From Thiotrichaceae bacterium (GTDB lineage Bacteria; Pseudomonadota; Gammaproteobacteria; Beggiatoales; Beggiatoaceae): a stretch of 64,000 nucleotides of DNA. The notes beneath the pieces are model-generated. The model was given only the letters and a program-made list of their open reading frames with translations. It ran no database searches and was not told the DNA's origin. Of the stretch, positions 26,731 through 61,180 are shown piece after piece. Both the position numbers and the translations under genes were made by a program. Numbering within the stretch: the stretch's first letter is position 1; the number at the start of each line of letters is the position of its first letter. The stretch lies in NCBI GenBank assembly GCA_011391085.1, contig JAABRD010000003.1, positions 62,001 to 126,000 of the forward strand, in the 5' to 3' direction.

Positions 26731-27616
26731 GGTATTTCTCCTTAACTATGTCGATATGAGTAAGGTAACAATAGGTAAACAAACGGACAGGTCTCGGCTA
26801 TTTTTTGTCTGCTAAGGTTAGCATATTCTATATCAAATTTCTATTTCTATGGCAAATAACGGTAGTAATGATTCAGGAGTCCAAAGCGTCGCCTTGGCCC
26901 CCTGGGGCTGGGACAATTACCATATATTTTAGATATAATTATTCAACGCTGTCCTCGGTTAGTATAGGAAATTTTTAAAATCAAATAGTTATAAACTAAT
27001 TACGAAAATTTTACTGAATAAAAAATGTAACAATTAATGAGTTTATCAGACTCAAATGTGAGAGTCAACTTCACGTCAAAATTATTACTGTAAGGGTAGT
27101 GAGGCAATGTGGGTGATTTTCCTAGTAGGGGGAAACCTTTGTGATTGCCCGCGGTTATGGCAACTTTCATCCATGTCACCCCGACATCACCGACATTGCA
27201 TCACCCCCCAAATAATGTTATCATAAAGTATCGAAGCAAAAGTTTTCTGGTAAAATAGAATGAATTAGGACTTACGCAGATCACCTGAAATCAATGGCAA
27301 CGAGAAACTGAGTTTCTTTGACATTTTTGCATAAGTCCTATGAATAATGAATAACAGGAACCGGGTGTTCGCCTAGTACCGGTCTGGATTTTCTCATTGT
27401 TTATTATTTGGTAGTGATGCAATGTGGGTGATAGACACTTCCCCCACCCCCGGCCCTTCCCCCAAATGGAGAGGGGAGAACGGCGGCACCAGTGGTTTTC
27501 TCCCCTCTCCCTCTGGGAGAGGGGCCGGGGGTGAGGGTAAACATATCACCCAGATTGCATCACTACCCATTATTCATTGGAATTTATTATTCAGCAGAAT
27601 TTATTATCCTTATCTC
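26731..27616. other. Gene-free stretch of 0.9 kb with several repeats
   Basis: A degraded GGAGTCCAAAGCG palindrome lies at 26872-26930, AT-rich DNA without reading frames at 26930-27080, a MITE-like unit at about 27093-27214 (GTAGTGAGGCAATGTGGGTG ... CGACATTGCATCACCCCCC), a fragment GAGAAACTGAGTTTCTTTGA at 27300, and a full MITE at 27410-27567. The promoter of the two-component operon should lie at its right end but is not obvious. Confidence 0.6.
27410..27567. mobile_element. MITE-like element, 158 bp, GC-rich core
   Basis: Ends GGTAGTGATGCAATGTGGGT and ACCCAGATTGCATCACTACC. The core is a different palindrome from that in 22027-22192, built of CCCTCACCCCCGGCCC / GAGAGGGGCCGGGGGTGAGG arms. 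Very similar copies lie at 30836-30997 and 58416-58568. An ORF through it (from 27422) only reads the repeat. Confidence 0.85.
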
Positions 27617-46582: not shown

Positions 46583-49500
46583 TTACATCCTGGCGAGGCG
46601 AAAACCGACATCGTAGCCTCGGTCCGCACGCGCGTTCCTGCCGCGGGTGGACGCACGCACCCACCGCGGGTCGTAGTACCAAGCACCGCCGCGAATCACA
46701 CGAAGGCTGCCATCATTGGCACGATTATTGCTAGAGCCATCCTTATTGGCATCATTTTCACCCGCACACTCTAACTCTTTACCACTATATTTCTCCTCAT
46801 ATTCTGAACAAGTCCATTCCCAAACATTTCCCACCGTATCGCACAATCCAAACGGATTGTACACAAAAGAACAAACTGGGGCAGTTAATTTATTATCCCA
46901 TTGACTTCCACAACCATCACAATTCGCATGATTACCACCAATCTCATTACCCCACCAATAATCCGTTTCCGTCCCAGCCCGTGCTGCATATTCCCATTCC
47001 GCTTCCGTCGGCAAACGATACGACTCACCTGTCAACTCACTTAACCATTCTGCATAAGCCGTCGCACCATCCCAAGAGACATTAATCACCGGACGCTTAC
47101 CACGTCCCCAACCCCTATCACCAGGCTTTTCTTGCCCCGTTTGTTCAGCAAAATAGTCATATTCCTCAAACGTCACTTCATGGCGACCCATTGCAAAACT
47201 TTTTACTGAAACAGCATGAACCGGCTGTTCATCAGCAAACCCTGTTCCTTGTATATCACCCATTCGAAATTGACCGGCGGGAATAGTGACCATTTCTGGC
47301 AACACTGGAAAAGTAATATACCACACCTGTCCATCACTTGTCAACACCACTCTACTAATTTTTAATTGTTCCCCCCCAACTTCCACTTGCACATACAATG
47401 GCTTTTGAGAATTATTCTGCCAAAAAGAATCAGCCACTTGAGAAGTCATCTCAACTCTCCCCAATTTCAGCAACCCCAAAAACTTTACCCAAGTTGCCTG
47501 CCATTCCAAAGTAACAAATAATTTTTCAGCCTTCGCATTATAATTCTTGAGAGAAGCCACCCCCACTTGATAACGTGCCTCACCTTGTGAACTGGCTTGA
47601 TTAAACTCCGCCAGCAACCGTTCACGACGCGCTTGAAACTCTTGCGCACTTTCAAAAACACCACGTTGTGGATTAAGAATCTCAGGAAGATTAGACGATT
47701 CAGGCAACCCCAACACATACAAAAAACTCCCCACAATTCCCAAGACTCCAACCCACATCACCATACTCATTGCCCATCTCAATTTTGGTAATTGTGTTGA
47801 TGTCACAAACTTCGACATCACTTCAAGTACCACCTTTGGCACCCTAACACTCAATGGATCTGCCAAAAACGTCAAGAATATATAATCTCGCAACGCACTC
47901 CGCTTGTCAACTGTTTTAGACAAAATCGGCAATAATTTTTTTACCAAAGTTAACCAACCCTTCTGTTGTTCTCTCGCCACCTCCAACCGAAACTCCCCTT
48001 TTCCCCCTTCCACAGCCGTCAGCAACAACACTTGCAACGCTTCCCGTATCTCCTTTTCCTGCGCCAAAGACAAGTCCTTCACTAACTTCTCCCGCAACCA
48101 ATTGGGCATGTAGCCATAACGAAACCAAGATAACCGGGCTAATTTTGCCAATCGTTCCTCATTGAGAACCTGCAATGCTTCCCCCAAATACAACGTCAAT
48201 TGCCAGCGTAATTCGGGATACACCGCACAGGCACTGAACCAATCATAGCCCGTTGCACCTAAAAACTGACGCACTTGCGCTAACAATTCCGTCACTGTTT
48301 CAGCCTCTGGTGCATGACGTTCCAAATAACGACGGGGACGGTCTATCAACATCTCCGGAAAAGGTGATTCTGGAGAAGACGCAAGGTCTGCTTTTCTCTG
48401 TTCATTGATATATTCCACCAAGACAGTTAAACCCTTTTCATTGGCGGGCAAGACGAGAAAACCTGCTTCGTCTTCTAATAACTTCTCACGATAGCCCCAT
48501 TGTGGTTGCGCTTCCAAAGTGAACAAAGTACGTTGTGACCAATCAGACAATTGCGTCACCCACCCCGCCAATTCGCCCGTAATGGGATGAATGAACCCTT
48601 GACCATCAGTAAAAATTAACAAGCGATGCTGCGGATAACGCCCTGCCAATTCGGGCAGAGTCAGCGGTGGCAATTGCGGTTGTTCTGGATAACACCGCCG
48701 TGGGTCGGCATCAAAATAATAACGGGTGATAAACACTTCCTCCGCTTCCAACCGTTTGACCAAAGTATTGATAAACTCAGCTTGATGGTCTCTAAACGTG
48801 GTGCGGTCTATCAATACCAAATATTCAGGAGAGGTTTGCACCGTGCCCATGACCGGCGTAAACCATCCTCCCGCTTGAATCGTTTTGGCCAAGGTCGTCT
48901 TCACGTCCAAATGAGAAGTAGGCAAAGTGAAATGTTTGCGCAACCCTTGGGCTACCCGTTGCAACGGTACAGAGGAGAATAACTGGTGTTGATGCCCCTG
49001 AACCAAAAATTGTTGGAGGTCGGGTTGCGTGGAGACCGTTTTGCGGGCTAGAAAACGATGCACTTGGTATTGCCACCATAACCACCAGGTCAAAAACAGA
49101 AACAAGGGGAGTAATAAAGTTAGCCCAATATTCCATTTGGATTCCCAAATATTTTGCGAAAGAGTGGGTTGGGAAGGAGGTATCGCGATCTTTGAAGTTT
49201 CTGGCGGCAATCCCGACGGTTTCACCACTTCAGGCGCAGGTGAAGAAGTGGTTGTTTCATCAATAGGTTTGGTTACTTGAGGAGACTTAAGTTCAGAACT
49301 ATCTTGGTTTAATTTGAATAATTCCATAGGTACTAAAATCAACATCAATACCAATACCAGTCGCCAGGTCCATTTCCAAAACGTCATGCCTCGACTGATA
49401 GATTTTAATTCAATTTCTAAAGACGAAGGTTGCGACTTCACTTCGATTCTCGTTTCAAATCGACTCACCCATTTCTCGAAATGCAGGACAAAGTCTTCTT

Positions 49501-49705
49501 GTTCTTTTAGTGAATGACATAATACCGGGGCCAAGAAAGTCTGCAAGTCGGCTAATTTAGCGGGCAAGCGACCTTGGGCAGTGAGTGCCAGAATTAAATT
49601 TTGCACCGTGATAAATTGTTCTAGGCCGATGTTGTAGCCAAATCTGGTGCGTAATTCATCGATAAAATTGAGAAGGTCTTGAGTGAGAGTGTTAGGGTTA
49701 AGCAT
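46583..49705 (-). CDS. vWA-like/FGE-domain membrane protein, conflict-system effector or sensor
   Basis: A 1040-residue protein. Residues 1-90 are a helical domain. TM1 lies near 113-130 and TM2 near 191-212. Residues ~290-430 have a vWA-like fold (SPEYLVLIDRTTFRDHQAEF, HRLLIFTDGQGFIHPITGEL), in which the metal-site D-x-S-x-S is degenerate (DRTTF). A third hydrophobic stretch (WVGVLGIVGSFLYVLGL) follows at about residue 650. The last ~240 residues are a formylglycine-generating-enzyme (SUMF1) domain: MVTIPAGQFRMGDIQG, RHEVTFEEYDYFAEQ, YRLPTEAEWEYAARAGTETD, NPFGLCDTVGNVWEWT. The C-terminus RGGAWYYDPRWVRASTRGRN...GFRLARM is much richer in GC than the rest and fits a variable region. In this operon it probably couples a surface or ligand-sensing FGE fold to the MoxR ATPase. 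Confidence 0.85.
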   Translation of the reverse strand: MLNPNTLTQDLLNFIDELRTRFGYNIGLEQFITVQNLILALTAQGRLPAKLADLQTFLAPVLCHSLKEQEDFVLHFEKWVSRFETRIEVKSQPSSLEIELKSISRGMTFWKWTWRLVLVLMLILVPMELFKLNQDSSELKSPQVTKPIDETTTSSPAPEVVKPSGLPPETSKIAIPPSQPTLSQNIWESKWNIGLTLLLPLFLFLTWWLWWQYQVHRFLARKTVSTQPDLQQFLVQGHQHQLFSSVPLQRVAQGLRKHFTLPTSHLDVKTTLAKTIQAGGWFTPVMGTVQTSPEYLVLIDRTTFRDHQAEFINTLVKRLEAEEVFITRYYFDADPRRCYPEQPQLPPLTLPELAGRYPQHRLLIFTDGQGFIHPITGELAGWVTQLSDWSQRTLFTLEAQPQWGYREKLLEDEAGFLVLPANEKGLTVLVEYINEQRKADLASSPESPFPEMLIDRPRRYLERHAPEAETVTELLAQVRQFLGATGYDWFSACAVYPELRWQLTLYLGEALQVLNEERLAKLARLSWFRYGYMPNWLREKLVKDLSLAQEKEIREALQVLLLTAVEGGKGEFRLEVAREQQKGWLTLVKKLLPILSKTVDKRSALRDYIFLTFLADPLSVRVPKVVLEVMSKFVTSTQLPKLRWAMSMVMWVGVLGIVGSFLYVLGLPESSNLPEILNPQRGVFESAQEFQARRERLLAEFNQASSQGEARYQVGVASLKNYNAKAEKLFVTLEWQATWVKFLGLLKLGRVEMTSQVADSFWQNNSQKPLYVQVEVGGEQLKISRVVLTSDGQVWYITFPVLPEMVTIPAGQFRMGDIQGTGFADEQPVHAVSVKSFAMGRHEVTFEEYDYFAEQTGQEKPGDRGWGRGKRPVINVSWDGATAYAEWLSELTGESYRLPTEAEWEYAARAGTETDYWWGNEIGGNHANCDGCGSQWDNKLTAPVCSFVYNPFGLCDTVGNVWEWTCSEYEEKYSGKELECAGENDANKDGSSNNRANDGSLRVIRGGAWYYDPRWVRASTRGRNARADRGYDVGFRLARM

Positions 49706-50647: not shown

Positions 50648-51658
50648 TTAAACCATTACTGATACAATATCACCTTTCTTCAACCATTTCTCAGCCATTT
50701 CTTGATCTTCCCGCGTCTTCACCAAACTACTCAAAGTCTCTTTAACCCTATCAGCAGGCCGAGTAGCCAACGGATTCTCTTCCTCTTTAAACATGTCTCG
50801 CAACACCTGTAACCAATTTAACAACTCCGCAGTCGCTGGTTTCTTCCGCAAACTGGCCTGTCGTAATTGTGCGAAAATGTCTAATGCGTCATTCAGAAAG
50901 GGACTACCTTGTTTGAGATTTTCTCCCAACCGTGTTTCCACAATCTTGACCAAACGTTCACGGTCTGGAAAAGAAATATGGTAGTAAATACAACGACGTA
51001 AGAAGGCATCGGGTAAGTGTTTTTCCGAATTACTGGTTAACACCAGAATCGGGGAAAACTGAGGACCCGCTTGGATAAGTCGGTTCTCTAATTCGGGAAT
51101 GCGAAAATATAAATTTTCTACTTCATTGAGAATATCATTGGGAAAATCGCGAGGGGCTTTGTCGATCTCGTCAATGAGGACTATGGAACGACGAGGTTCA
51201 CGATAATTTGTCTCTGCCAACGGCAAAAATGGTTGAATCTGTTCAGCAGGTTGAGTCAACAAAATGGCCGTACCTAACGCATTGAAAGTAAAATATTTAA
51301 GAGGGTCAATGACCGTCCCCGCTGGTTGCGTTTGAATCGCCCGGAAGTGACTTAAAGCGTCATAGAAATAAAACAAATCGCGGGCGGTGCTGGTGGACTT
51401 CGTTTCAAATTTTAGAGGCGGTTCTAGTCCCAGTTGATAAGCCAAACTATAGGCCAGTTGTGTTTTGCCGGTGCCAGGTTCGCCGGAGAGTAATAACGGT
51501 TGTCCCAAAAGCAGGGCGACGTTGACTGCGTCCACCAGTCCTTTCTCAGGTAGGTAGGCGTCGGGACGAGTTTGGGAGAGGTGGCGTGACGGGGGTAACG
51601 CTACCGGTGTTGCTGGACGTTGCGGAGGAGGTTGGGGGGTGTAAAAGGGGTAGTTCAT
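50648..51658 (-). CDS. MoxR-family AAA+ ATPase
   Basis: A 336-residue AAA+ protein. Walker A is GEPGTGKT (59-66), Walker B is IVLIDEID (159-166), sensor 1 is in LVLTSNSEKHLPDAF and the Arg finger in FLRRC. The opening YLPEKGLVDAVNVALLLGQP and the phrase FETKSTSTARDLFYFYDALS are those of the MoxR type found with vWA and EAD proteins in conflict loci rather than of the DUF58-linked type. It would remodel its partner in an ATP-dependent way. Its ATG overlaps the stop of the EAD2-iSTAND gene (ATGA). Confidence 0.92.
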   Translation of the reverse strand: MNYPFYTPQPPPQRPATPVALPPSRHLSQTRPDAYLPEKGLVDAVNVALLLGQPLLLSGEPGTGKTQLAYSLAYQLGLEPPLKFETKSTSTARDLFYFYDALSHFRAIQTQPAGTVIDPLKYFTFNALGTAILLTQPAEQIQPFLPLAETNYREPRRSIVLIDEIDKAPRDFPNDILNEVENLYFRIPELENRLIQAGPQFSPILVLTSNSEKHLPDAFLRRCIYYHISFPDRERLVKIVETRLGENLKQGSPFLNDALDIFAQLRQASLRKKPATAELLNWLQVLRDMFKEEENPLATRPADRVKETLSSLVKTREDQEMAEKWLKKGDIVSVMV

Positions 51659-52818
51659 GGTTTATTTCTATCATTACAGTATTTTTCACGTAAAAATTCA
51701 ACTTCTTTAACGACAGGTTCCATAGGCAGTTTATCCTTCTCAGCGAAAATCTGACGGAGTTCTCGCAATAATTCAGGGTGACGACAATCTGGTAAATACT
51801 TTCTCGCCCATTCTTCCACATCGAGGCTTCTAATATCCTGTAATTCTGGCAACACCACCCCAGGTACTGAAAACTTGGCGAGAAAATCTTCTTTGGCCAG
51901 ATTTTCAAACGTTTCCCTGATAGTTTGATTAACTGATGTTCTCTTGAACAAACGGTGAAACCAGCTATTTTTCACATTATCTTGATAATGAAAAAACACA
52001 CATATCAACAATAGTTGGTTAGGGGCAAGGGAACAGTTCCAATCACTCCAAAAACGAATGAAAGACTCAAGTAGTTTTTCTTTCTCACAGTCTAGCCAAT
52101 GTTCAGTGTACATGTGAGTGTGGAGTATCACAGGAAAAGGATAAGTGGCAACTTTTCGAATAATTTCTGTGACTTTAACTTCAGCGTATCTATCAGATAA
52201 CAGGGCTTCTGCTAAACTAATTCGAATACTCTCATGTAAGTCATTCAGATTATCAATATTGCAATTAATATGATAGGACGCCACGCCCTCTTTACTCAAG
52301 GTAAAATCCGGGATTAATTCTTTTTCCAGACGAGTTAAAAAGGTATCGCTACATTGGTTCTCGTTACTGTGAATAAAACAAAGCAGAGGACCTGTATTAT
52401 CAGGACATTTTCGTATCGTCTTAATTGCAGAAATTAATTTTGTAGTTTGCTTATCACGGTTAATCAAATAGGGTAACAATGAACCTTTGTTCGCTTTTTT
52501 AGGGGACAAATTAGATTTATCTTTCGTCTGATAACTAGACAGCCCTAAATTATCTATTAATTCCTCAACTTGTTGCAATGGAATAGTCTCCCCCTCAAAG
52601 ACACGAATAGTTGCCACCAACTCAGTTAAACCGTTTGGATATTTTGAACAGGTTTCAACAATCTTTATGACTTGGTCTCGATTGGTTGAACCATGAGGAA
52701 TGGCATTGGACATGTTTTTGGGTAGCTGATTCAATAGCGCGGAAAGTGAATGTTGGTCTTTGAGGCTAGGACATTCTAACAGTGCCTCGACTAGTTTTAA
52801 GAGGTGGTTAGTTAACAT
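51655..52818 (-). CDS. EAD2-iSTAND conflict-system protein
   Basis: A 387-residue protein. Residues 1-90 match effector-associated domain 2: LLKLVEALLECPSLKDQHSL, SNAIPHGSTNRDQVIKIVET, CSKYPNGLTELVATIRVFEG. Residues ~110-330 resemble the inactive STAND domain (SLLPYLINRDKQTTKLISAI, GPLLCFIHSNENQCSDTFLT): a P-loop-like start without the Gly-Lys-Ser/Thr motif. A short helical tail ends the protein. EADs are adaptor domains that bring an effector to its partner by like-with-like pairing. The stop overlaps the MoxR start, which strongly supports a shared function. Confidence 0.75.
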   Translation of the reverse strand: MLTNHLLKLVEALLECPSLKDQHSLSALLNQLPKNMSNAIPHGSTNRDQVIKIVETCSKYPNGLTELVATIRVFEGETIPLQQVEELIDNLGLSSYQTKDKSNLSPKKANKGSLLPYLINRDKQTTKLISAIKTIRKCPDNTGPLLCFIHSNENQCSDTFLTRLEKELIPDFTLSKEGVASYHINCNIDNLNDLHESIRISLAEALLSDRYAEVKVTEIIRKVATYPFPVILHTHMYTEHWLDCEKEKLLESFIRFWSDWNCSLAPNQLLLICVFFHYQDNVKNSWFHRLFKRTSVNQTIRETFENLAKEDFLAKFSVPGVVLPELQDIRSLDVEEWARKYLPDCRHPELLRELRQIFAEKDKLPMEPVVKEVEFLREKYCNDRNKP

Positions 52819-52834
52819 GATTTACAAGTTGTCT

Positions 52835-52975
52835 CCAGAATCGGTAAGTAGTGAAGCAGAAATTTTCTGGTATAATGACGCCCTTACCCTCACCCCCCGG
52901 CCCCTCTCCCTCTGGGAGAGGGGCCGGGGGTGAGGGCGACGATTGAAAATACGGTAAAATTTCTGCTTCGGTACT
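52835..52975. mobile_element. Second type of MITE-like element
   Basis: The ends AAGCAGAAATTTTCTGGTAT and GGTAAAATTTCTGCTTC are inverted, so the unit differs from the GGTAGTGATGCAAT family, yet the core CCCTCACCCCCCGGCCCCTC / GGGCCGGGGGTGAGGGC is shared. A half copy of the same ends occurs near 27229-27260. Confidence 0.7.
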
Positions 52976-56512: not shown

Positions 56513-57892
56513 ATGAACAACTTTGATAAACCTTGGGGTGGTCGTTTCACCCAAGCAACGGATGTCTTTGTGGAAGCTTTTACCGCGTCTGTGAATTTTG
56601 ATAAACGTTTGTATGAGTATGACATCATGGGTTCCATTGCCCATGCCAAAATGCTTGCCCAAGTTGGAATCTTGACCAGGACGGAGTGTAACAGCATTGT
56701 AGAGGGGTTGCAAGCCATTCAGCAAGAAATCTTAGAAGGGAAGTTTGAATGGTCGGTGGCATTGGAGGATGTCCACATGAACATTGAGACGGTACTGGTA
56801 CAAAAAATTGGGCCAGTGGGCAAGAAACTGCATACAGGTCGTTCGAGAAATGACCAGGTCGCAACGGATATTCGTCTGTATTTGCGGTATGAAATTGATT
56901 TGTTAGGTGCCCAGATAACACGCTTGATCAAGATTCTTGCGGAAGTCGCAGAACGCGAAGCCGATACCATTATGCCAGGGTTCACACATCTACAAAGTGC
57001 CCAGCCTATCATATTTGGTCATCACTTGTTGGCGTGGTGTGAAATGTTGTTACGGGATCGAGACCGGTTACAAGATTGTCGGAAGCGCGTTAACTGTTTG
57101 CCGCTGGGGGCCGCCGCGTTGGCAGGTACCAGTTATCCTATAGACCGTCGATATACGGCCCAACTGCTAGGTTTCGAGACGGTAGCTGAAAATTCTTTGG
57201 ATGCTGTAAGCGACCGTGATTTCGCGATTGAATTTACGAGTTGCGCAACATTGTTGATGATGCACTTATCCCGCTTCTCAGAAGAGATTGTCTTATGGTC
57301 TTCCGCCCAGTTTAACTTCATTGAATTAAGTGATGCGTTCTGTACCGGTTCCTCCATCATGCCACAGAAGAAAAATCCAGACGTACCAGAACTGGTGCGG
57401 GGGAAAACGGGGAGAGTGTATGGTCACTTGATCAGTTTGTTGACGTTGATGAAATCTCAACCATTGGCTTATAACAAAGATAATCAGGAGGACAAGGAGC
57501 CGTTGTTTGACACGATAGATACCTTGAAAGGGTGTTTGCGTGTGTACGGAGACATGATGCCATCGATACGAGTGAACCGGGAAGTCATGTATCAAGCGGC
57601 TGGAAGAGGTTTTACCACGGCCACAGATTTGGCCGATTATCTGGTGAAGAAGGGAATGCCATTTCGAGATGCCCACGAAGTGGTCGGCAAAGTGGTACGT
57701 CATGCCATTGACACCCACTGTCATTTAGATGAAATCAGCCTCGATGTGCTTAGAAGTTTTTCTGTGCTAATTGAGGAAGACATATATGTTAAATTGACAT
57801 TAGAAGGTTCTGTGGCAAGCCGTCATCATTTTGGAGGAACTGCACCACAACAAGTGCGTAAAGCAATAAAGCGTTTGCGAGGTCGTTTTTAA
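56513..57892 (+). CDS. argH: Argininosuccinate lyase
   Basis: ArgH cleaves argininosuccinate into arginine and fumarate, the last step of arginine synthesis. The 459-residue product has [40 protein letters not shown], the Ser-loop signature [20 protein letters not shown] and [12 protein letters not shown] near the end. Length matches the family. There is no obvious ribosome site, and the start is set by similarity. It stands alone on the plus strand. Confidence 0.98.
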
Positions 57893-58415: not shown

Positions 58416-58568
58416 GGTAGTGATGCAAAGTGGGTGATAGACACTTCCCCCAGCCCCTCCCCCTACAGGCGCGGGGAGAACTGCGATACCCGTGGTTTTC
58501 ACCCCTCTCCCCCTGGGAGAGGAGCCGGGGGAGAGGGTAAACATATCACAAAGAATTGCATCACTACC
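58416..58568. mobile_element. MITE-like element, 153 bp, GC-rich core
   Basis: Ends GGTAGTGATGCAAAGTGGGT and AAGAATTGCATCACTACC. Core of CCCCAGCCCCTCCCCC / GGGAGAGGAGCCGGGGGAG, as in 27410-27567. Confidence 0.85.
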
Positions 58569-58600: not shown

Positions 58601-60370
58601 ATGAAACAATCTCGCAACAAAATATTTTTAGCCATGTTCGGCACCTTAATCAGTGGTTGTGCCGCGGTGGAAATTTTTTTTGGCAAAGACCTCAAAGAAC
58701 TACCCAACTACCGTCTCAGTGCAGGAGATTTGGTCCAAGTGGAGGTGTCTGAAACTCGTCAGCAAGTCAATTTACAAATTAGTAAATCGGGAGAACTTTC
58801 TTACCCCCCCTTCTTCAAGGAGGTGCAAGCTTCTGGATTAACGGTTGCTGAACTGTCTCAAACTTTATCTTCAAAATGGCAAGGTAAAGCAACCAAACCT
58901 AAGCCGAAAGTCAATGTCACTCTGTATCGTTTTCAAGAAGGTGATACCGTCCATCTCAATGTTGTCGGCAAACATACATTCAACACCACGGTCATCATAG
59001 ATGCTACTGGGATGGTGTCTCATCCTAAATTAGGTGAGTTACGAGTCGCTAATTTAACACCGGAAGACCTAGAACAACTGGTGATGACCAAGTTGAAAGT
59101 GACTTATCCAGAAGACCGTCCCCAGGTCATGGTAGCTTTGTTAGCGGATAAGCAAGTCAAAGCGGTTCGGACCTCTCTCCCCAAAGCAGTGAGTGCCCCA
59201 ACGTCTTCACCGGAACCAGGACCTTCAAACTCCGGGCAACAGGGACAAGGGTCTGGAAAAGATGAGGATACGATAAACAAGGGCCGCCAAGTGGGACCTT
59301 TTCTCGCATATCCTGAAGTGGGGACAACGGTGGTGCATGACAGCAATATTTTTCAGTCTCCAGACAATGAAAGAAGTTCTTTGGTCTTCACTATCAACCC
59401 TGGTTTAAAATTGAAAAGAAATTGGCAAGGTAGTAACTATGCTTTAGCATTAGCCAGTCCCATCGGAATTTATGCAGACAGTTCTAACGACAACTACGTA
59501 GATGGCCAATTTTCTGCCCAGGCGGACTGGAAGTTACCGCGTAGTTTGGGCTTGAAATTTCTTGGAGAATACCTGAGAGGACATGACTCTCGTGGGGCAA
59601 CCGACCGTCCTGATGCGGGGGAACCGAATACCTGGCATTCTGGCCGTATCAGTGTCACTGGTAGTTATGGACGCAAGGAGACCCGGGCACGTTTAGAAGT
59701 GGGTGGAAATTTTACTCTCAAGCGTTATGACCAGTTTGGACTCCCTGAAAAATTGGACGATAAAAATATTGCCAACCTCAATACCACGTTGTTTTACCAA
59801 GTCTTGCCAAAAACGTATCTACTGGGTAAAATTCAATATGCGAGTACCGATTATGTCTCTTCACTTTCGACGGTAGACAGTCAAGAAATGAAATACTCCA
59901 TCGGTGCCACTTGGGATGCGACGGCAAAGACCAGTGCCAATATCGAACTGGGGTATCGTAACAGAAGCTATGATGCCACTGGTGTAGAGAATGTATCAGG
60001 TATCTATTGGAATGCTGGGGTCCAATGGAAACCGTTGAGTCACTCAATATTAGATTTGACGACCAGCAAATTCGTAGATGATGCGACAGGGATAGGCAGT
60101 TATATTTCCCAACAGAATGTTGGAGTGGCTTGGAAACACAAATGGAGTCCACGTATCCTGTCCTCTGCCAACTTTTCCATAGGTACTTCTGATTATGGTG
60201 GAAGTTCTCGAAACGATGATTTGTACAACTACGGAGTTAACCTGACCTATCAATATCGCAAATGGTTAAATGTGGGAACTGGCGTGCAAATGAATCACCG
60301 AGATTCTAACAATGACCATTTTGACTATGACAAAACCGTGTTTTCGGTGAACTTACGGGCCACTTTCTGA
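58601..60370 (+). CDS. Polysaccharide export lipoprotein fused to a beta-barrel
   Basis: A 589-residue protein. A lipobox ends at Cys20 (GTLISGC). Residues ~34-110 are a Poly_export domain as in Wza (YRLSAGDLVQVEVSETRQQV, ISKSGELSYPPFFKEVQASG) and residues ~115-195 a second SLBB-like part (DTVHLNVVGKHTFNTTVIID, MVSHPKLGELRVANLTPEDL). A Ser/Pro/Gln linker to ~235 follows, then ~350 residues of alternating beta strands ending in Phe, typical of an outer membrane barrel of the BBP2 type (FLAYPEVGTTVVHDSNIFQS). Export of a polysaccharide through the outer membrane is likely. It pairs with the next gene. Confidence 0.82.
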   Translation: MKQSRNKIFLAMFGTLISGCAAVEIFFGKDLKELPNYRLSAGDLVQVEVSETRQQVNLQISKSGELSYPPFFKEVQASGLTVAELSQTLSSKWQGKATKPKPKVNVTLYRFQEGDTVHLNVVGKHTFNTTVIIDATGMVSHPKLGELRVANLTPEDLEQLVMTKLKVTYPEDRPQVMVALLADKQVKAVRTSLPKAVSAPTSSPEPGPSNSGQQGQGSGKDEDTINKGRQVGPFLAYPEVGTTVVHDSNIFQSPDNERSSLVFTINPGLKLKRNWQGSNYALALASPIGIYADSSNDNYVDGQFSAQADWKLPRSLGLKFLGEYLRGHDSRGATDRPDAGEPNTWHSGRISVTGSYGRKETRARLEVGGNFTLKRYDQFGLPEKLDDKNIANLNTTLFYQVLPKTYLLGKIQYASTDYVSSLSTVDSQEMKYSIGATWDATAKTSANIELGYRNRSYDATGVENVSGIYWNAGVQWKPLSHSILDLTTSKFVDDATGIGSYISQQNVGVAWKHKWSPRILSSANFSIGTSDYGGSSRNDDLYNYGVNLTYQYRKWLNVGTGVQMNHRDSNNDHFDYDKTVFSVNLRATF

Positions 60371-60436
60371 ACCAAATTAGAGTTCAAATTCGATAAAGAA
60401 TTTGGACTCTAAAATTTTTCAGTGATAGAAAATGTT

Positions 60437-61093
60437 ATGAAAATGTATAAATTATTAATTGTCGTGCTGTATGCGTTAGTGGTAGGATGTACTACCACGC
60501 AGGAATTATTTGAAAGCAATTTAGGAAGTGGTTCAAATCCAAGTAACAATAACACGACTTCTCCTCGTCAAAATTCCACTACCGGCAAAAAAGACTCTCT
60601 TCCAAACCGAATCGGAACTTTTCCAGCAACGAATATGTTGTCACACTATCAACTGGGACCTGGAGATTTGGTCAGTATTAAAATCTTTGGTGAAAATGAC
60701 CTGAGTACCGAAACACGCCTGAGTGATGGCGGCACCATTTCATACCCACTGCTGGGCGAATTACAGGTATCTGGTTTGACCATTGGTGAATTGGAAACGA
60801 AAGTCGCCAATAAGTTAAAAGAAGGTTACTTAGTCAATCCCAGAGTGACGGTTACCATCTTAGAATATCGCCAATTTTTCATCAATGGTGAGGTTCAAAA
60901 ACCCGGCGGTTATGCGTTTATGCCAGGTTTAACGGTCAATAAAGCGATTTCTTTGGCCGGTGGATTTTCTCAAGTGGCTTCGAAGACCGCCATTTATATC
61001 ATTCGTGACGGTCAAGAAAAAGCCCTTCCCGCTGGTTTGAACACATTTGTTCAGCCAGGTGATATTATTACCGTTAAGGAAAGTTTTTTCTGA
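60437..61093 (+). CDS. Wza-like polysaccharide export lipoprotein
   Basis: A 218-residue lipoprotein (signal MKMYKLLIVVLYALVVGCTT) with a Poly_export domain (YQLGPGDLVSIKIFGENDLS, TISYPLLGELQVSGLTIGEL) and an SLBB domain (FFINGEVQKPGGYAFMPGLT). It lacks the long C-terminal helix of full Wza, as is common for exporters of the Wza-truncated type. The frame opens at GTG 60422, but ATG 60437 gives a better signal peptide. It lies 66 bases after the barrel fusion gene and is probably in one operon with it. No tyrosine kinase/co-polymerase gene follows here. Confidence 0.9.
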   Translation: MKMYKLLIVVLYALVVGCTTTQELFESNLGSGSNPSNNNTTSPRQNSTTGKKDSLPNRIGTFPATNMLSHYQLGPGDLVSIKIFGENDLSTETRLSDGGTISYPLLGELQVSGLTIGELETKVANKLKEGYLVNPRVTVTILEYRQFFINGEVQKPGGYAFMPGLTVNKAISLAGGFSQVASKTAIYIIRDGQEKALPAGLNTFVQPGDIITVKESFF

Positions 61094-61149: not shown

Positions 61150-61180
61150 GGGATAACACCCCTTCGTGGGGTGTTATCCC
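61150..61180 (+). terminator. Perfect 13-bp hairpin after the export operon
   Basis: GGGATAACACCCC, loop TTCGT, GGGGTGTTATCCC. It lies 57 bases beyond the stop of the export gene. There is no T run after it, so it may be a transcript-end stabiliser or attenuator rather than a classic terminator. Confidence 0.6.

What the first reader, a model, noticed from the sequence alone, without database searches (positions are those of the whole stretch)
58601..60370. Wza-type export domain fused to an outer membrane beta-barrel
Seen: lipobox, Poly_export and SLBB-like domains, then a linker and a ~350-residue strand-rich C-terminus ending in Phe. Known: Wza crosses the outer membrane with a helix barrel made of C-terminal helices, and EPS loci often carry a separate BBP2-type barrel. 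Inference: the fusion joins periplasmic channel and outer membrane pore in one chain, paired with a normal short export protein at 60437-61093.
Basis: partly seen in the sequence, partly recalled or inferred. Interest (0 to 1): 0.6.

Follow-up and report, generated by a model that had tools for sequence, protein, structure and literature searches.

The report
Sugar-export pore fused to docking domains
This gene joins an outer-membrane pore of the kind thought to let sugar polymers out of bacteria to two copies of a periplasmic domain that normally sits in a separate partner protein; it is a real but rare rearrangement, shared with a Thiomargarita genome, of a known type of export machine.

Summary
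The ORF at 58601-60370 (+) is real: 589 residues with a lipoprotein-like start, TWO tandem Poly_export (Wza D1-type) domains, a flexible linker and an 18-stranded BBP2_2 barrel. It is not an assembly join: a Thiomargarita genome has a matching fusion (36% identity; its first D1 copy recognisable only by alignment) at the same site after argH, and the two barrels form one clade (98/97). Fusions are rare: 2 of 42 genomes of the order; among 398 genomes drawn from the phylum no listed match spans both parts except the window's (list cut); 0 of 35 other long barrel ORFs. Relatives mostly encode barrel, OPX ring protein and PCP as separate adjacent genes. Most likely it is the outer-membrane porin of a composite OPX/beta-barrel translocon, carrying a built-in D1 pair that tethers it to the periplasmic machinery (the adjacent 223-aa OPX or the PCP arm), not a complete channel in one chain. 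The window genome's PCP lies on another contig; in the Thiomargarita genome no canonical PCP or short OPX was found. New variant of a known kind; mechanism inferred.

The parts
58601..60370 (+). fusion gene, 589 aa: lipoprotein-like start, Poly_export x2, linker, BBP2_2 barrel
58601..58660 (+). signal segment with lipobox-like LISGC (Cys20, Ala at +2)
   Evidence: read from sequence; the Thiomargarita copy lacks a Cys here, so a lipid anchor is not conserved
58697..58921 (+). first D1/Poly_export domain (residues 33-107)
   Evidence: 4e-12; Pfam also counts two stretches
58922..59137 (+). second D1/Poly_export domain (residues 108-179)
   Evidence: (7e-15)
59147..59278 (+). Ser/Pro/Gly-rich linker (residues 183-226)
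   Evidence: pLDDT <50 at 183-224; shorter in the Thiomargarita copy
59279..60367 (+). 18-stranded BBP2_2 outer-membrane barrel (residues 227-589), C-terminal Phe
   Evidence: PF10082 139.2 bits; model; AlgE first by Z, 21.4
60377..60412 (+). hairpin followed by a T-rich stretch between the two genes; possible attenuator or terminator
   Evidence: 1 found, 3.4 expected in shuffles, so not significant
60422..61093 (+). short OPX gene (223 aa from GTG; ATG at 60437) with lipobox-like start: Poly_export + one SLBB
   Evidence: lipobox read by eye
56513..57892 (+). argH, the upstream neighbour shared with the Thiomargarita locus (72% identity)

Best explanation
The gene encodes the outer-membrane porin of a composite OPX/beta-barrel polysaccharide translocon, in which the barrel has gained an N-terminal pair of Wza D1-type domains. 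Shown here: the domains, the predicted barrel fold, and a common origin with the Thiomargarita fusion. Inferred: the barrel is the exit pore for an exopolysaccharide; the adjacent 223-aa OPX (Poly_export + SLBB) forms the periplasmic ring under it; the Wzc-like PCP on contig C92 feeds it; and the D1 pair acts as a tether that captures the OPX ring or the PCP arm and holds the barrel over the channel. That could matter because the export genes are no longer clustered in this genome. One barrel per ring is assumed.
For: Domains. 18-stranded barrel in a model with mean pLDDT 83; by VIA-align the first twelve rows are AlgE (Z 21.4 to 20.3; best row rmsd 4.2, 306 aligned). The same barrel family sits beside an OPX gene in 11 of the 14 loci. 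In the fetched relatives barrel and OPX usually lie beside a further ORF of about 730-830 aa; Pfam names the one tested Wzz/GNVR/AAA, and Wzz or PCP matches fall in that place in G017, G026, G032, G003 and G009. The fusion is the only BBP2_2 match in its genome, and a PCP (56% identity over its best piece) with a CpsB/CapC gene remains on C92. The Wzc forearm touches Wza D1 (PMC12881504 passages), so a D1 tether could reach a PCP. Same site after argH and one clade.
Against: None of the eight Pfam-tested neighbours in the window is a polysaccharide gene. The Thiomargarita copy persists although no Wzz match and no short OPX were found in that genome (130 contigs, so absence is not certain). 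Foldseek's own order puts a siderophore receptor first and AlgE 11th, and by Z OccK7 (20.3) is nearly as good as AlgE, so the fold alone does not show sugar export. The D1 copies are diverged and the Thiomargarita first copy is missed by the profiles. The lipid anchor is not conserved. No complex was modelled.
Confidence: 0.57

Rival explanations
1. Mixed ring: the two fused D1 domains take the places of two OPX subunits in an eight-membered D1 tier, so that one fusion chain plus six neighbouring OPX chains make one translocon with exactly one barrel.
For: Two D1 copies in tandem in one chain; each is more like the neighbouring OPX D1 (z 13.5 and 14.0) than like the other copy (z 6.9); a full short OPX is the next gene.
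Against: The copies keep only 14 and 17 of 28 conserved D1 positions; the D2 tier would be incomplete, as the fusion has no SLBB; no short OPX was found in the Thiomargarita genome.
Confidence: 0.13
2. Self-sufficient exporter: the fusion works alone, its D1 pair forming a minimal periplasmic vestibule and no separate OPX ring being needed.
For: The Thiomargarita fusion lies between argH and a trpE-like gene with no other OPX hit in the roughly 10 kb fetched on either side; genome-wide the only other Poly_export match there is a 401-aa frame of a different locus.
Against: The window genome keeps a short OPX directly downstream; no SLBB domain in either fusion.
Confidence: 0.12
3. Ordinary or decaying porin: the D1 pair is a leftover of a gene rearrangement with little function, and the Thiomargarita copy is drifting.
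For: Fast divergence: 36% between the fusions against 72% for the adjacent argH; the first D1 of Thiomargarita keeps 9 of 28 conserved positions and scores z 2.8 against the neighbouring OPX D1.
Against: The D1 region is kept in both lineages in an open frame; the second D1 is recognised in both; the barrel and its C-terminal Phe are intact in both.
Confidence: 0.16

Closest known systems
EpsX/EpsY (WzpX/WzaX) composite OPX/beta-barrel translocon of Myxococcus xanthus (PMC9601211, PMC9603273)
   Same: 18-stranded barrel with AlgE as closest structure, next to a short Poly_export + SLBB OPX for which no Wza_C helix domain was reported
   Different: there barrel and OPX are separate chains; here the barrel itself carries two further D1 domains and no D2, and no PCP or other polysaccharide gene was found nearby
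BBP2_2 (PF10082) / EpsL-type barrels of EPS loci
   Same: nearly the whole PF10082 profile matched, 139.2 bits
   Different: NCBIfam EpsL scores 67.2 against a cut-off of 275, so it is EpsL-like, not an EpsL by that model; none of 35 other long BBP2-type ORFs checked has the D1 pair
GfcD/YjbH
   Same: precedent for a barrel with an attached SLBB-like domain in one chain of a capsule system (passages of PMC9603273; PMC11494523 passages)
   Different: two barrels per chain and an SLBB-like periplasmic domain; here one BBP2_2 barrel and two Poly_export domains
Other BBP2_2 fusions seen here (SPOR x3, SH3, OEP)
   Same: a BBP2_2 barrel with an N-terminal accessory domain
   Different: no Poly_export found in them

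Membership tests
BBP2_2 (PF10082) | match above the curated cut-off over the barrel profile | tested here: met
   139.2 bits, cut-off 23.7, profile 6-377 of 378
EpsX/Wzp-type porins | 18-stranded barrel, AlgE-like | tested here: met
   18 strands counted in the predicted model; AlgE first by Z (21.4), with Occ porins within about 1; Foldseek ranks AlgE 11th
EpsL (TIGR03014) | score above the equivalog cut-off | tested here: not met
   67.2 of 275 bits
OPX proteins (definition quoted in PMC9603273) | Poly_export domain | tested here: met
   fusion 87 bits, neighbour 82.7 bits, cut-off 28
OPX proteins (definition quoted in PMC9603273) | at least one SLBB domain after Poly_export | tested here: not met
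   none reported for the fusion at E<=1; met by the neighbour
Composite OPX/beta-barrel translocon (PMC9601211) | short OPX (<=280 aa) encoded within five genes of an OM barrel | tested here: met
   223-aa OPX directly downstream
[quoted passage not shown]
   none among eight Pfam-tested neighbours in the window; of seven further ORFs beyond the window one is isoamylase-like and none an export or capsule gene. The PCP lies on another contig. This was a filter of that survey, so it lowers the claim of a clustered system, not of the mechanism
Composite OPX/beta-barrel translocon | barrel and OPX interact and stabilise each other | not testable with these tools
   needs pulldown, mutants or complex prediction

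The most novel reading that the evidence does not exclude
The tandem D1 pair replaces two of the eight OPX subunits, so that one fusion and six neighbouring OPX chains build an asymmetric ring with exactly one barrel: a built-in answer to how an eightfold ring recruits a single pore.
Probability: 0.12. Interest if true: 0.62.

Novelty: new variant of a known kind. Interest (0 to 1): 0.42.

Why it matters
Composite OPX/barrel translocons were proposed from separate genes; a natural chain that links the D1 module (the PCP-facing part in Wza-Wzc) to the barrel supports the idea that these parts work in one machine, and gives a construct in which barrel-to-ring stoichiometry and docking could be tested directly. 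Its retention in a Thiomargarita genome in which no short OPX or canonical PCP was found asks whether the ring is always needed.

Tried and rejected
Assembly or frameshift artefact: rejected, because a second genome has a fusion of the same kind at the same site. Simple read-through of neighbouring genes: unlikely, because in 9 of the 11 loci with both genes separate the barrel gene comes before the OPX gene, which would give barrel-OPX and not OPX-barrel order; the two Marithrix loci have the OPX first, so that order does exist. SLBB in the fusion: rejected. Recent tandem duplication as origin of the two D1 copies: not supported, each resembles the neighbouring OPX more than the other copy, but about 78 residues cannot settle the history.

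Structure without an alignment failed (pLDDT 30). The second job used 22 rows, in which the last four to six residues of each of the nine D1 fragments are misplaced into the barrel (I took A5 over A4 and A6, which were worse). The fold search barely tested the D1 part; PgaA and Wza are not among the rows shown, which excludes nothing. A single-sequence search of solved structures gave only PslD at E 0.35, and a profile of A2 gave only weak porin matches (OmpF, 0.0024). Tblastn in plasmids found 11 records, none covering 80% of the query, barrel part only. In one search one of the 23 reference rows keeps only 4 of 28 positions, probably by misalignment; it was left in. Papers: no description of a Poly_export-BBP2 fusion was seen in searches or in the parts of papers named in the report; supplements were not read and most subscription journals are not held. 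Searches (ring structures; polysaccharide in Thiomargarita and Beggiatoa) gave nothing on the fusion in their listings.

Full report
Observation. The ORF 58601-60370 on the + strand is open throughout and encodes 589 aa. Pfam gives Poly_export (87 bits, two stretches) and BBP2_2 at 227-588 (139.2 bits); no SLBB model was reported at E<=1. A D1 profile built here from 27 OPX sequences of relatives (the window's neighbour included, some rows identical) finds copies at 33-107 and 108-179. The next gene, 60422-61093, is a short OPX with Poly_export and one SLBB. The lipobox LISGC was read by eye; the Thiomargarita copy has no Cys at that place.

Structure. Without an alignment the model failed (pLDDT 30). 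With 22 rows from the window and from related-loci loci, mean pLDDT is 83.1 and pTM 0.61; residues 1-33 and 183-224 are below 50, the D1 pair is mostly 80-90 and the barrel mostly above 90. I count 18 strands in the barrel. In the second look by VIA-align the top twelve rows are AlgE (Z 21.4 to 20.3), followed at once by OccK7 (Z 20.3) and other porins; Foldseek's own list is headed by a siderophore receptor, with AlgE at rank 11. So the fold is an 18-stranded porin with AlgE slightly ahead, not proof of sugar transport. The D1 part was barely tested by that search.

Relatives. Among 57 genomes (own genome included) 17 have a match. In the order as held (42 genomes, 19 with a match) 15 genomes show barrel sequence; in G011 and G022 it is cut by contig ends; of the other 13, the window genome and G010 have the fusion and 11 have a separate barrel (G783 judged from its frame length only). 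G010 contig C104 has the same length as DYNP01000004, a Thiomargarita MAG (L040). Of the 14 loci, L040 is fused, 11 have barrel and OPX as separate ORFs, and L046 and L049 could not be resolved by my ORF caller.

The Thiomargarita fusion. It aligns with the window protein end to end at 36% identity. Its second D1 is found by Pfam (47.5 bits) and by the D1 profile. Its first D1 is below both; I call it a D1 only because it aligns with the window's first copy (z 12.0, 25 identities over 78 residues), and against the neighbouring OPX D1 it scores z 2.8 only.

Wider survey. In 398 genomes drawn from the phylum (132 with a match) no listed match other than the window's spans both parts; the list was cut. 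In 369 genomes drawn from the class, 144 have PF10082 matches (list also cut). I fetched 40 loci, chosen mostly for long barrel frames, from these two lists, not every one listed. With the two fusion loci added they gave 37 barrel ORFs of at least 440 aa; only the two fusions have a Poly_export/OPX hit. Other accessory domains do occur on BBP2_2 barrels: OEP (L094), SPOR x3 (L106), SH3 (L109).

Origin. A tree of 21 barrels puts the two fusions together (98/97; 96% of 200 bootstrap trees), though the G010 branch is long (1.15). Both lie downstream of argH (72% identity between the two argH); a search of the ORFs of 32 fetched loci (L022-L053) with the window's argH finds it in the fusion loci only (L022 and L040 are the same place, L038 is the window). 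One fusion event before the two lineages split is the simplest reading. The fusion changes faster than argH (36% against 72%).

Genome setting. The fusion is the only BBP2_2 match in G000 and in G010. G000 has Poly_export in three ORFs: the fusion, its neighbour and a 386-aa paralogue at C75:40290 beside a 710-aa ORF and a glycosyltransferase; G010 has a counterpart of that locus. G000 has one Wzz match, a PCP on C92 (best piece 56% identical to a relative's PCP) next to a CpsB/CapC gene; G010 has no Wzz match and only a weak 22% match, to the ORF of the paralogous locus. Both genomes are draft assemblies (99% complete or more by the tool's figures), so absence is likely but not certain. Around the pair in the window Pfam finds argH, DUF58, transglutaminase, AAA, EAD2/iSTAND, sulfatase-modifying, PPTase and NRPS genes; beyond the window NRPS, LysR, protease-like, isoamylase-like, YfiO and pseudouridine synthase genes.

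Mechanism. In the Myxococcus model an octamer of EpsY D2 domains lies under one EpsX barrel (PMC9601211, sections 9 and 11 read; abstract and outline; passages). In E. coli the Wzc forearm touches Wza D1 (PMC12881504, passages only). The fusion lacks D2 and brings two D1s, separated from the barrel by a flexible linker, so I favour a tether or docking role over a complete channel in one chain. The fused D1s keep 14 and 17 of 28 conserved positions (9 and 15 in Thiomargarita) against a mean of 24.9 in the 23 distinct reference rows, a comparison that favours the references because the positions were chosen on them. This suits an adapted docking module better than a standard ring subunit, but does not exclude the mixed ring. 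Against any ring-based reading, I found no short OPX in the Thiomargarita genome.

Known or new. The OPX classes described in PMC9603273 (section 6 read; abstract and outline; passages) do not include a BBP2 fusion or a Poly_export tandem without SLBB; GfcD is a precedent for a barrel with an SLBB-like domain (PMC11494523 passages). My paper searches showed no report of this fusion. I rate it a new variant of the composite OPX/barrel translocon, of moderate interest. On rechecking, the lone profile-level support for the Thiomargarita first D1 proved weaker than first written; I moved one point of confidence from the best explanation to the relic rival.

Noticed in passing
L094:2574-5177 (G274): A TolC-type OEP domain and a BBP2_2 barrel in one 867-aa ORF.
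   Followed up: no
L106:3197-5824 and L109:2050-3687: BBP2_2 barrels with three SPOR stretches and with a bacterial SH3 domain respectively: other periplasmic adaptors on the same barrel family.
   Followed up: no
L028:6623-9724 and L030:7103-10177 (Candidatus Marithrix; G003, G027): OPX proteins of 1033 and 1024 aa with about ten SLBB-type repeats, against one to four in the other relatives looked at.
   Followed up: partly
G000:C92:3723-6128 (L079:3561-6149): The window genome's PCP matches one stretch of a relative's PCP (about 268-325) twice, which may mean a lengthened periplasmic arm.
   Followed up: no
window 61151-61179: Perfect hairpin GGATAACACCCC-TTCGT-GGGGTGTTATCC after the OPX gene, one copy in the window within three mismatches.
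   Followed up: partly
window 58505-58537, 52904-52936, 27505-27537: GC-rich palindromic element, three copies in the window within three mismatches, none in 100 shuffles.
   Followed up: partly
window 51655-52818 and 46583-49705: EAD2 + inactive STAND protein near an AAA gene and a 1040-aa ORF with a C-terminal sulfatase-modifying domain; might be a conflict or signalling cluster.
   Followed up: no
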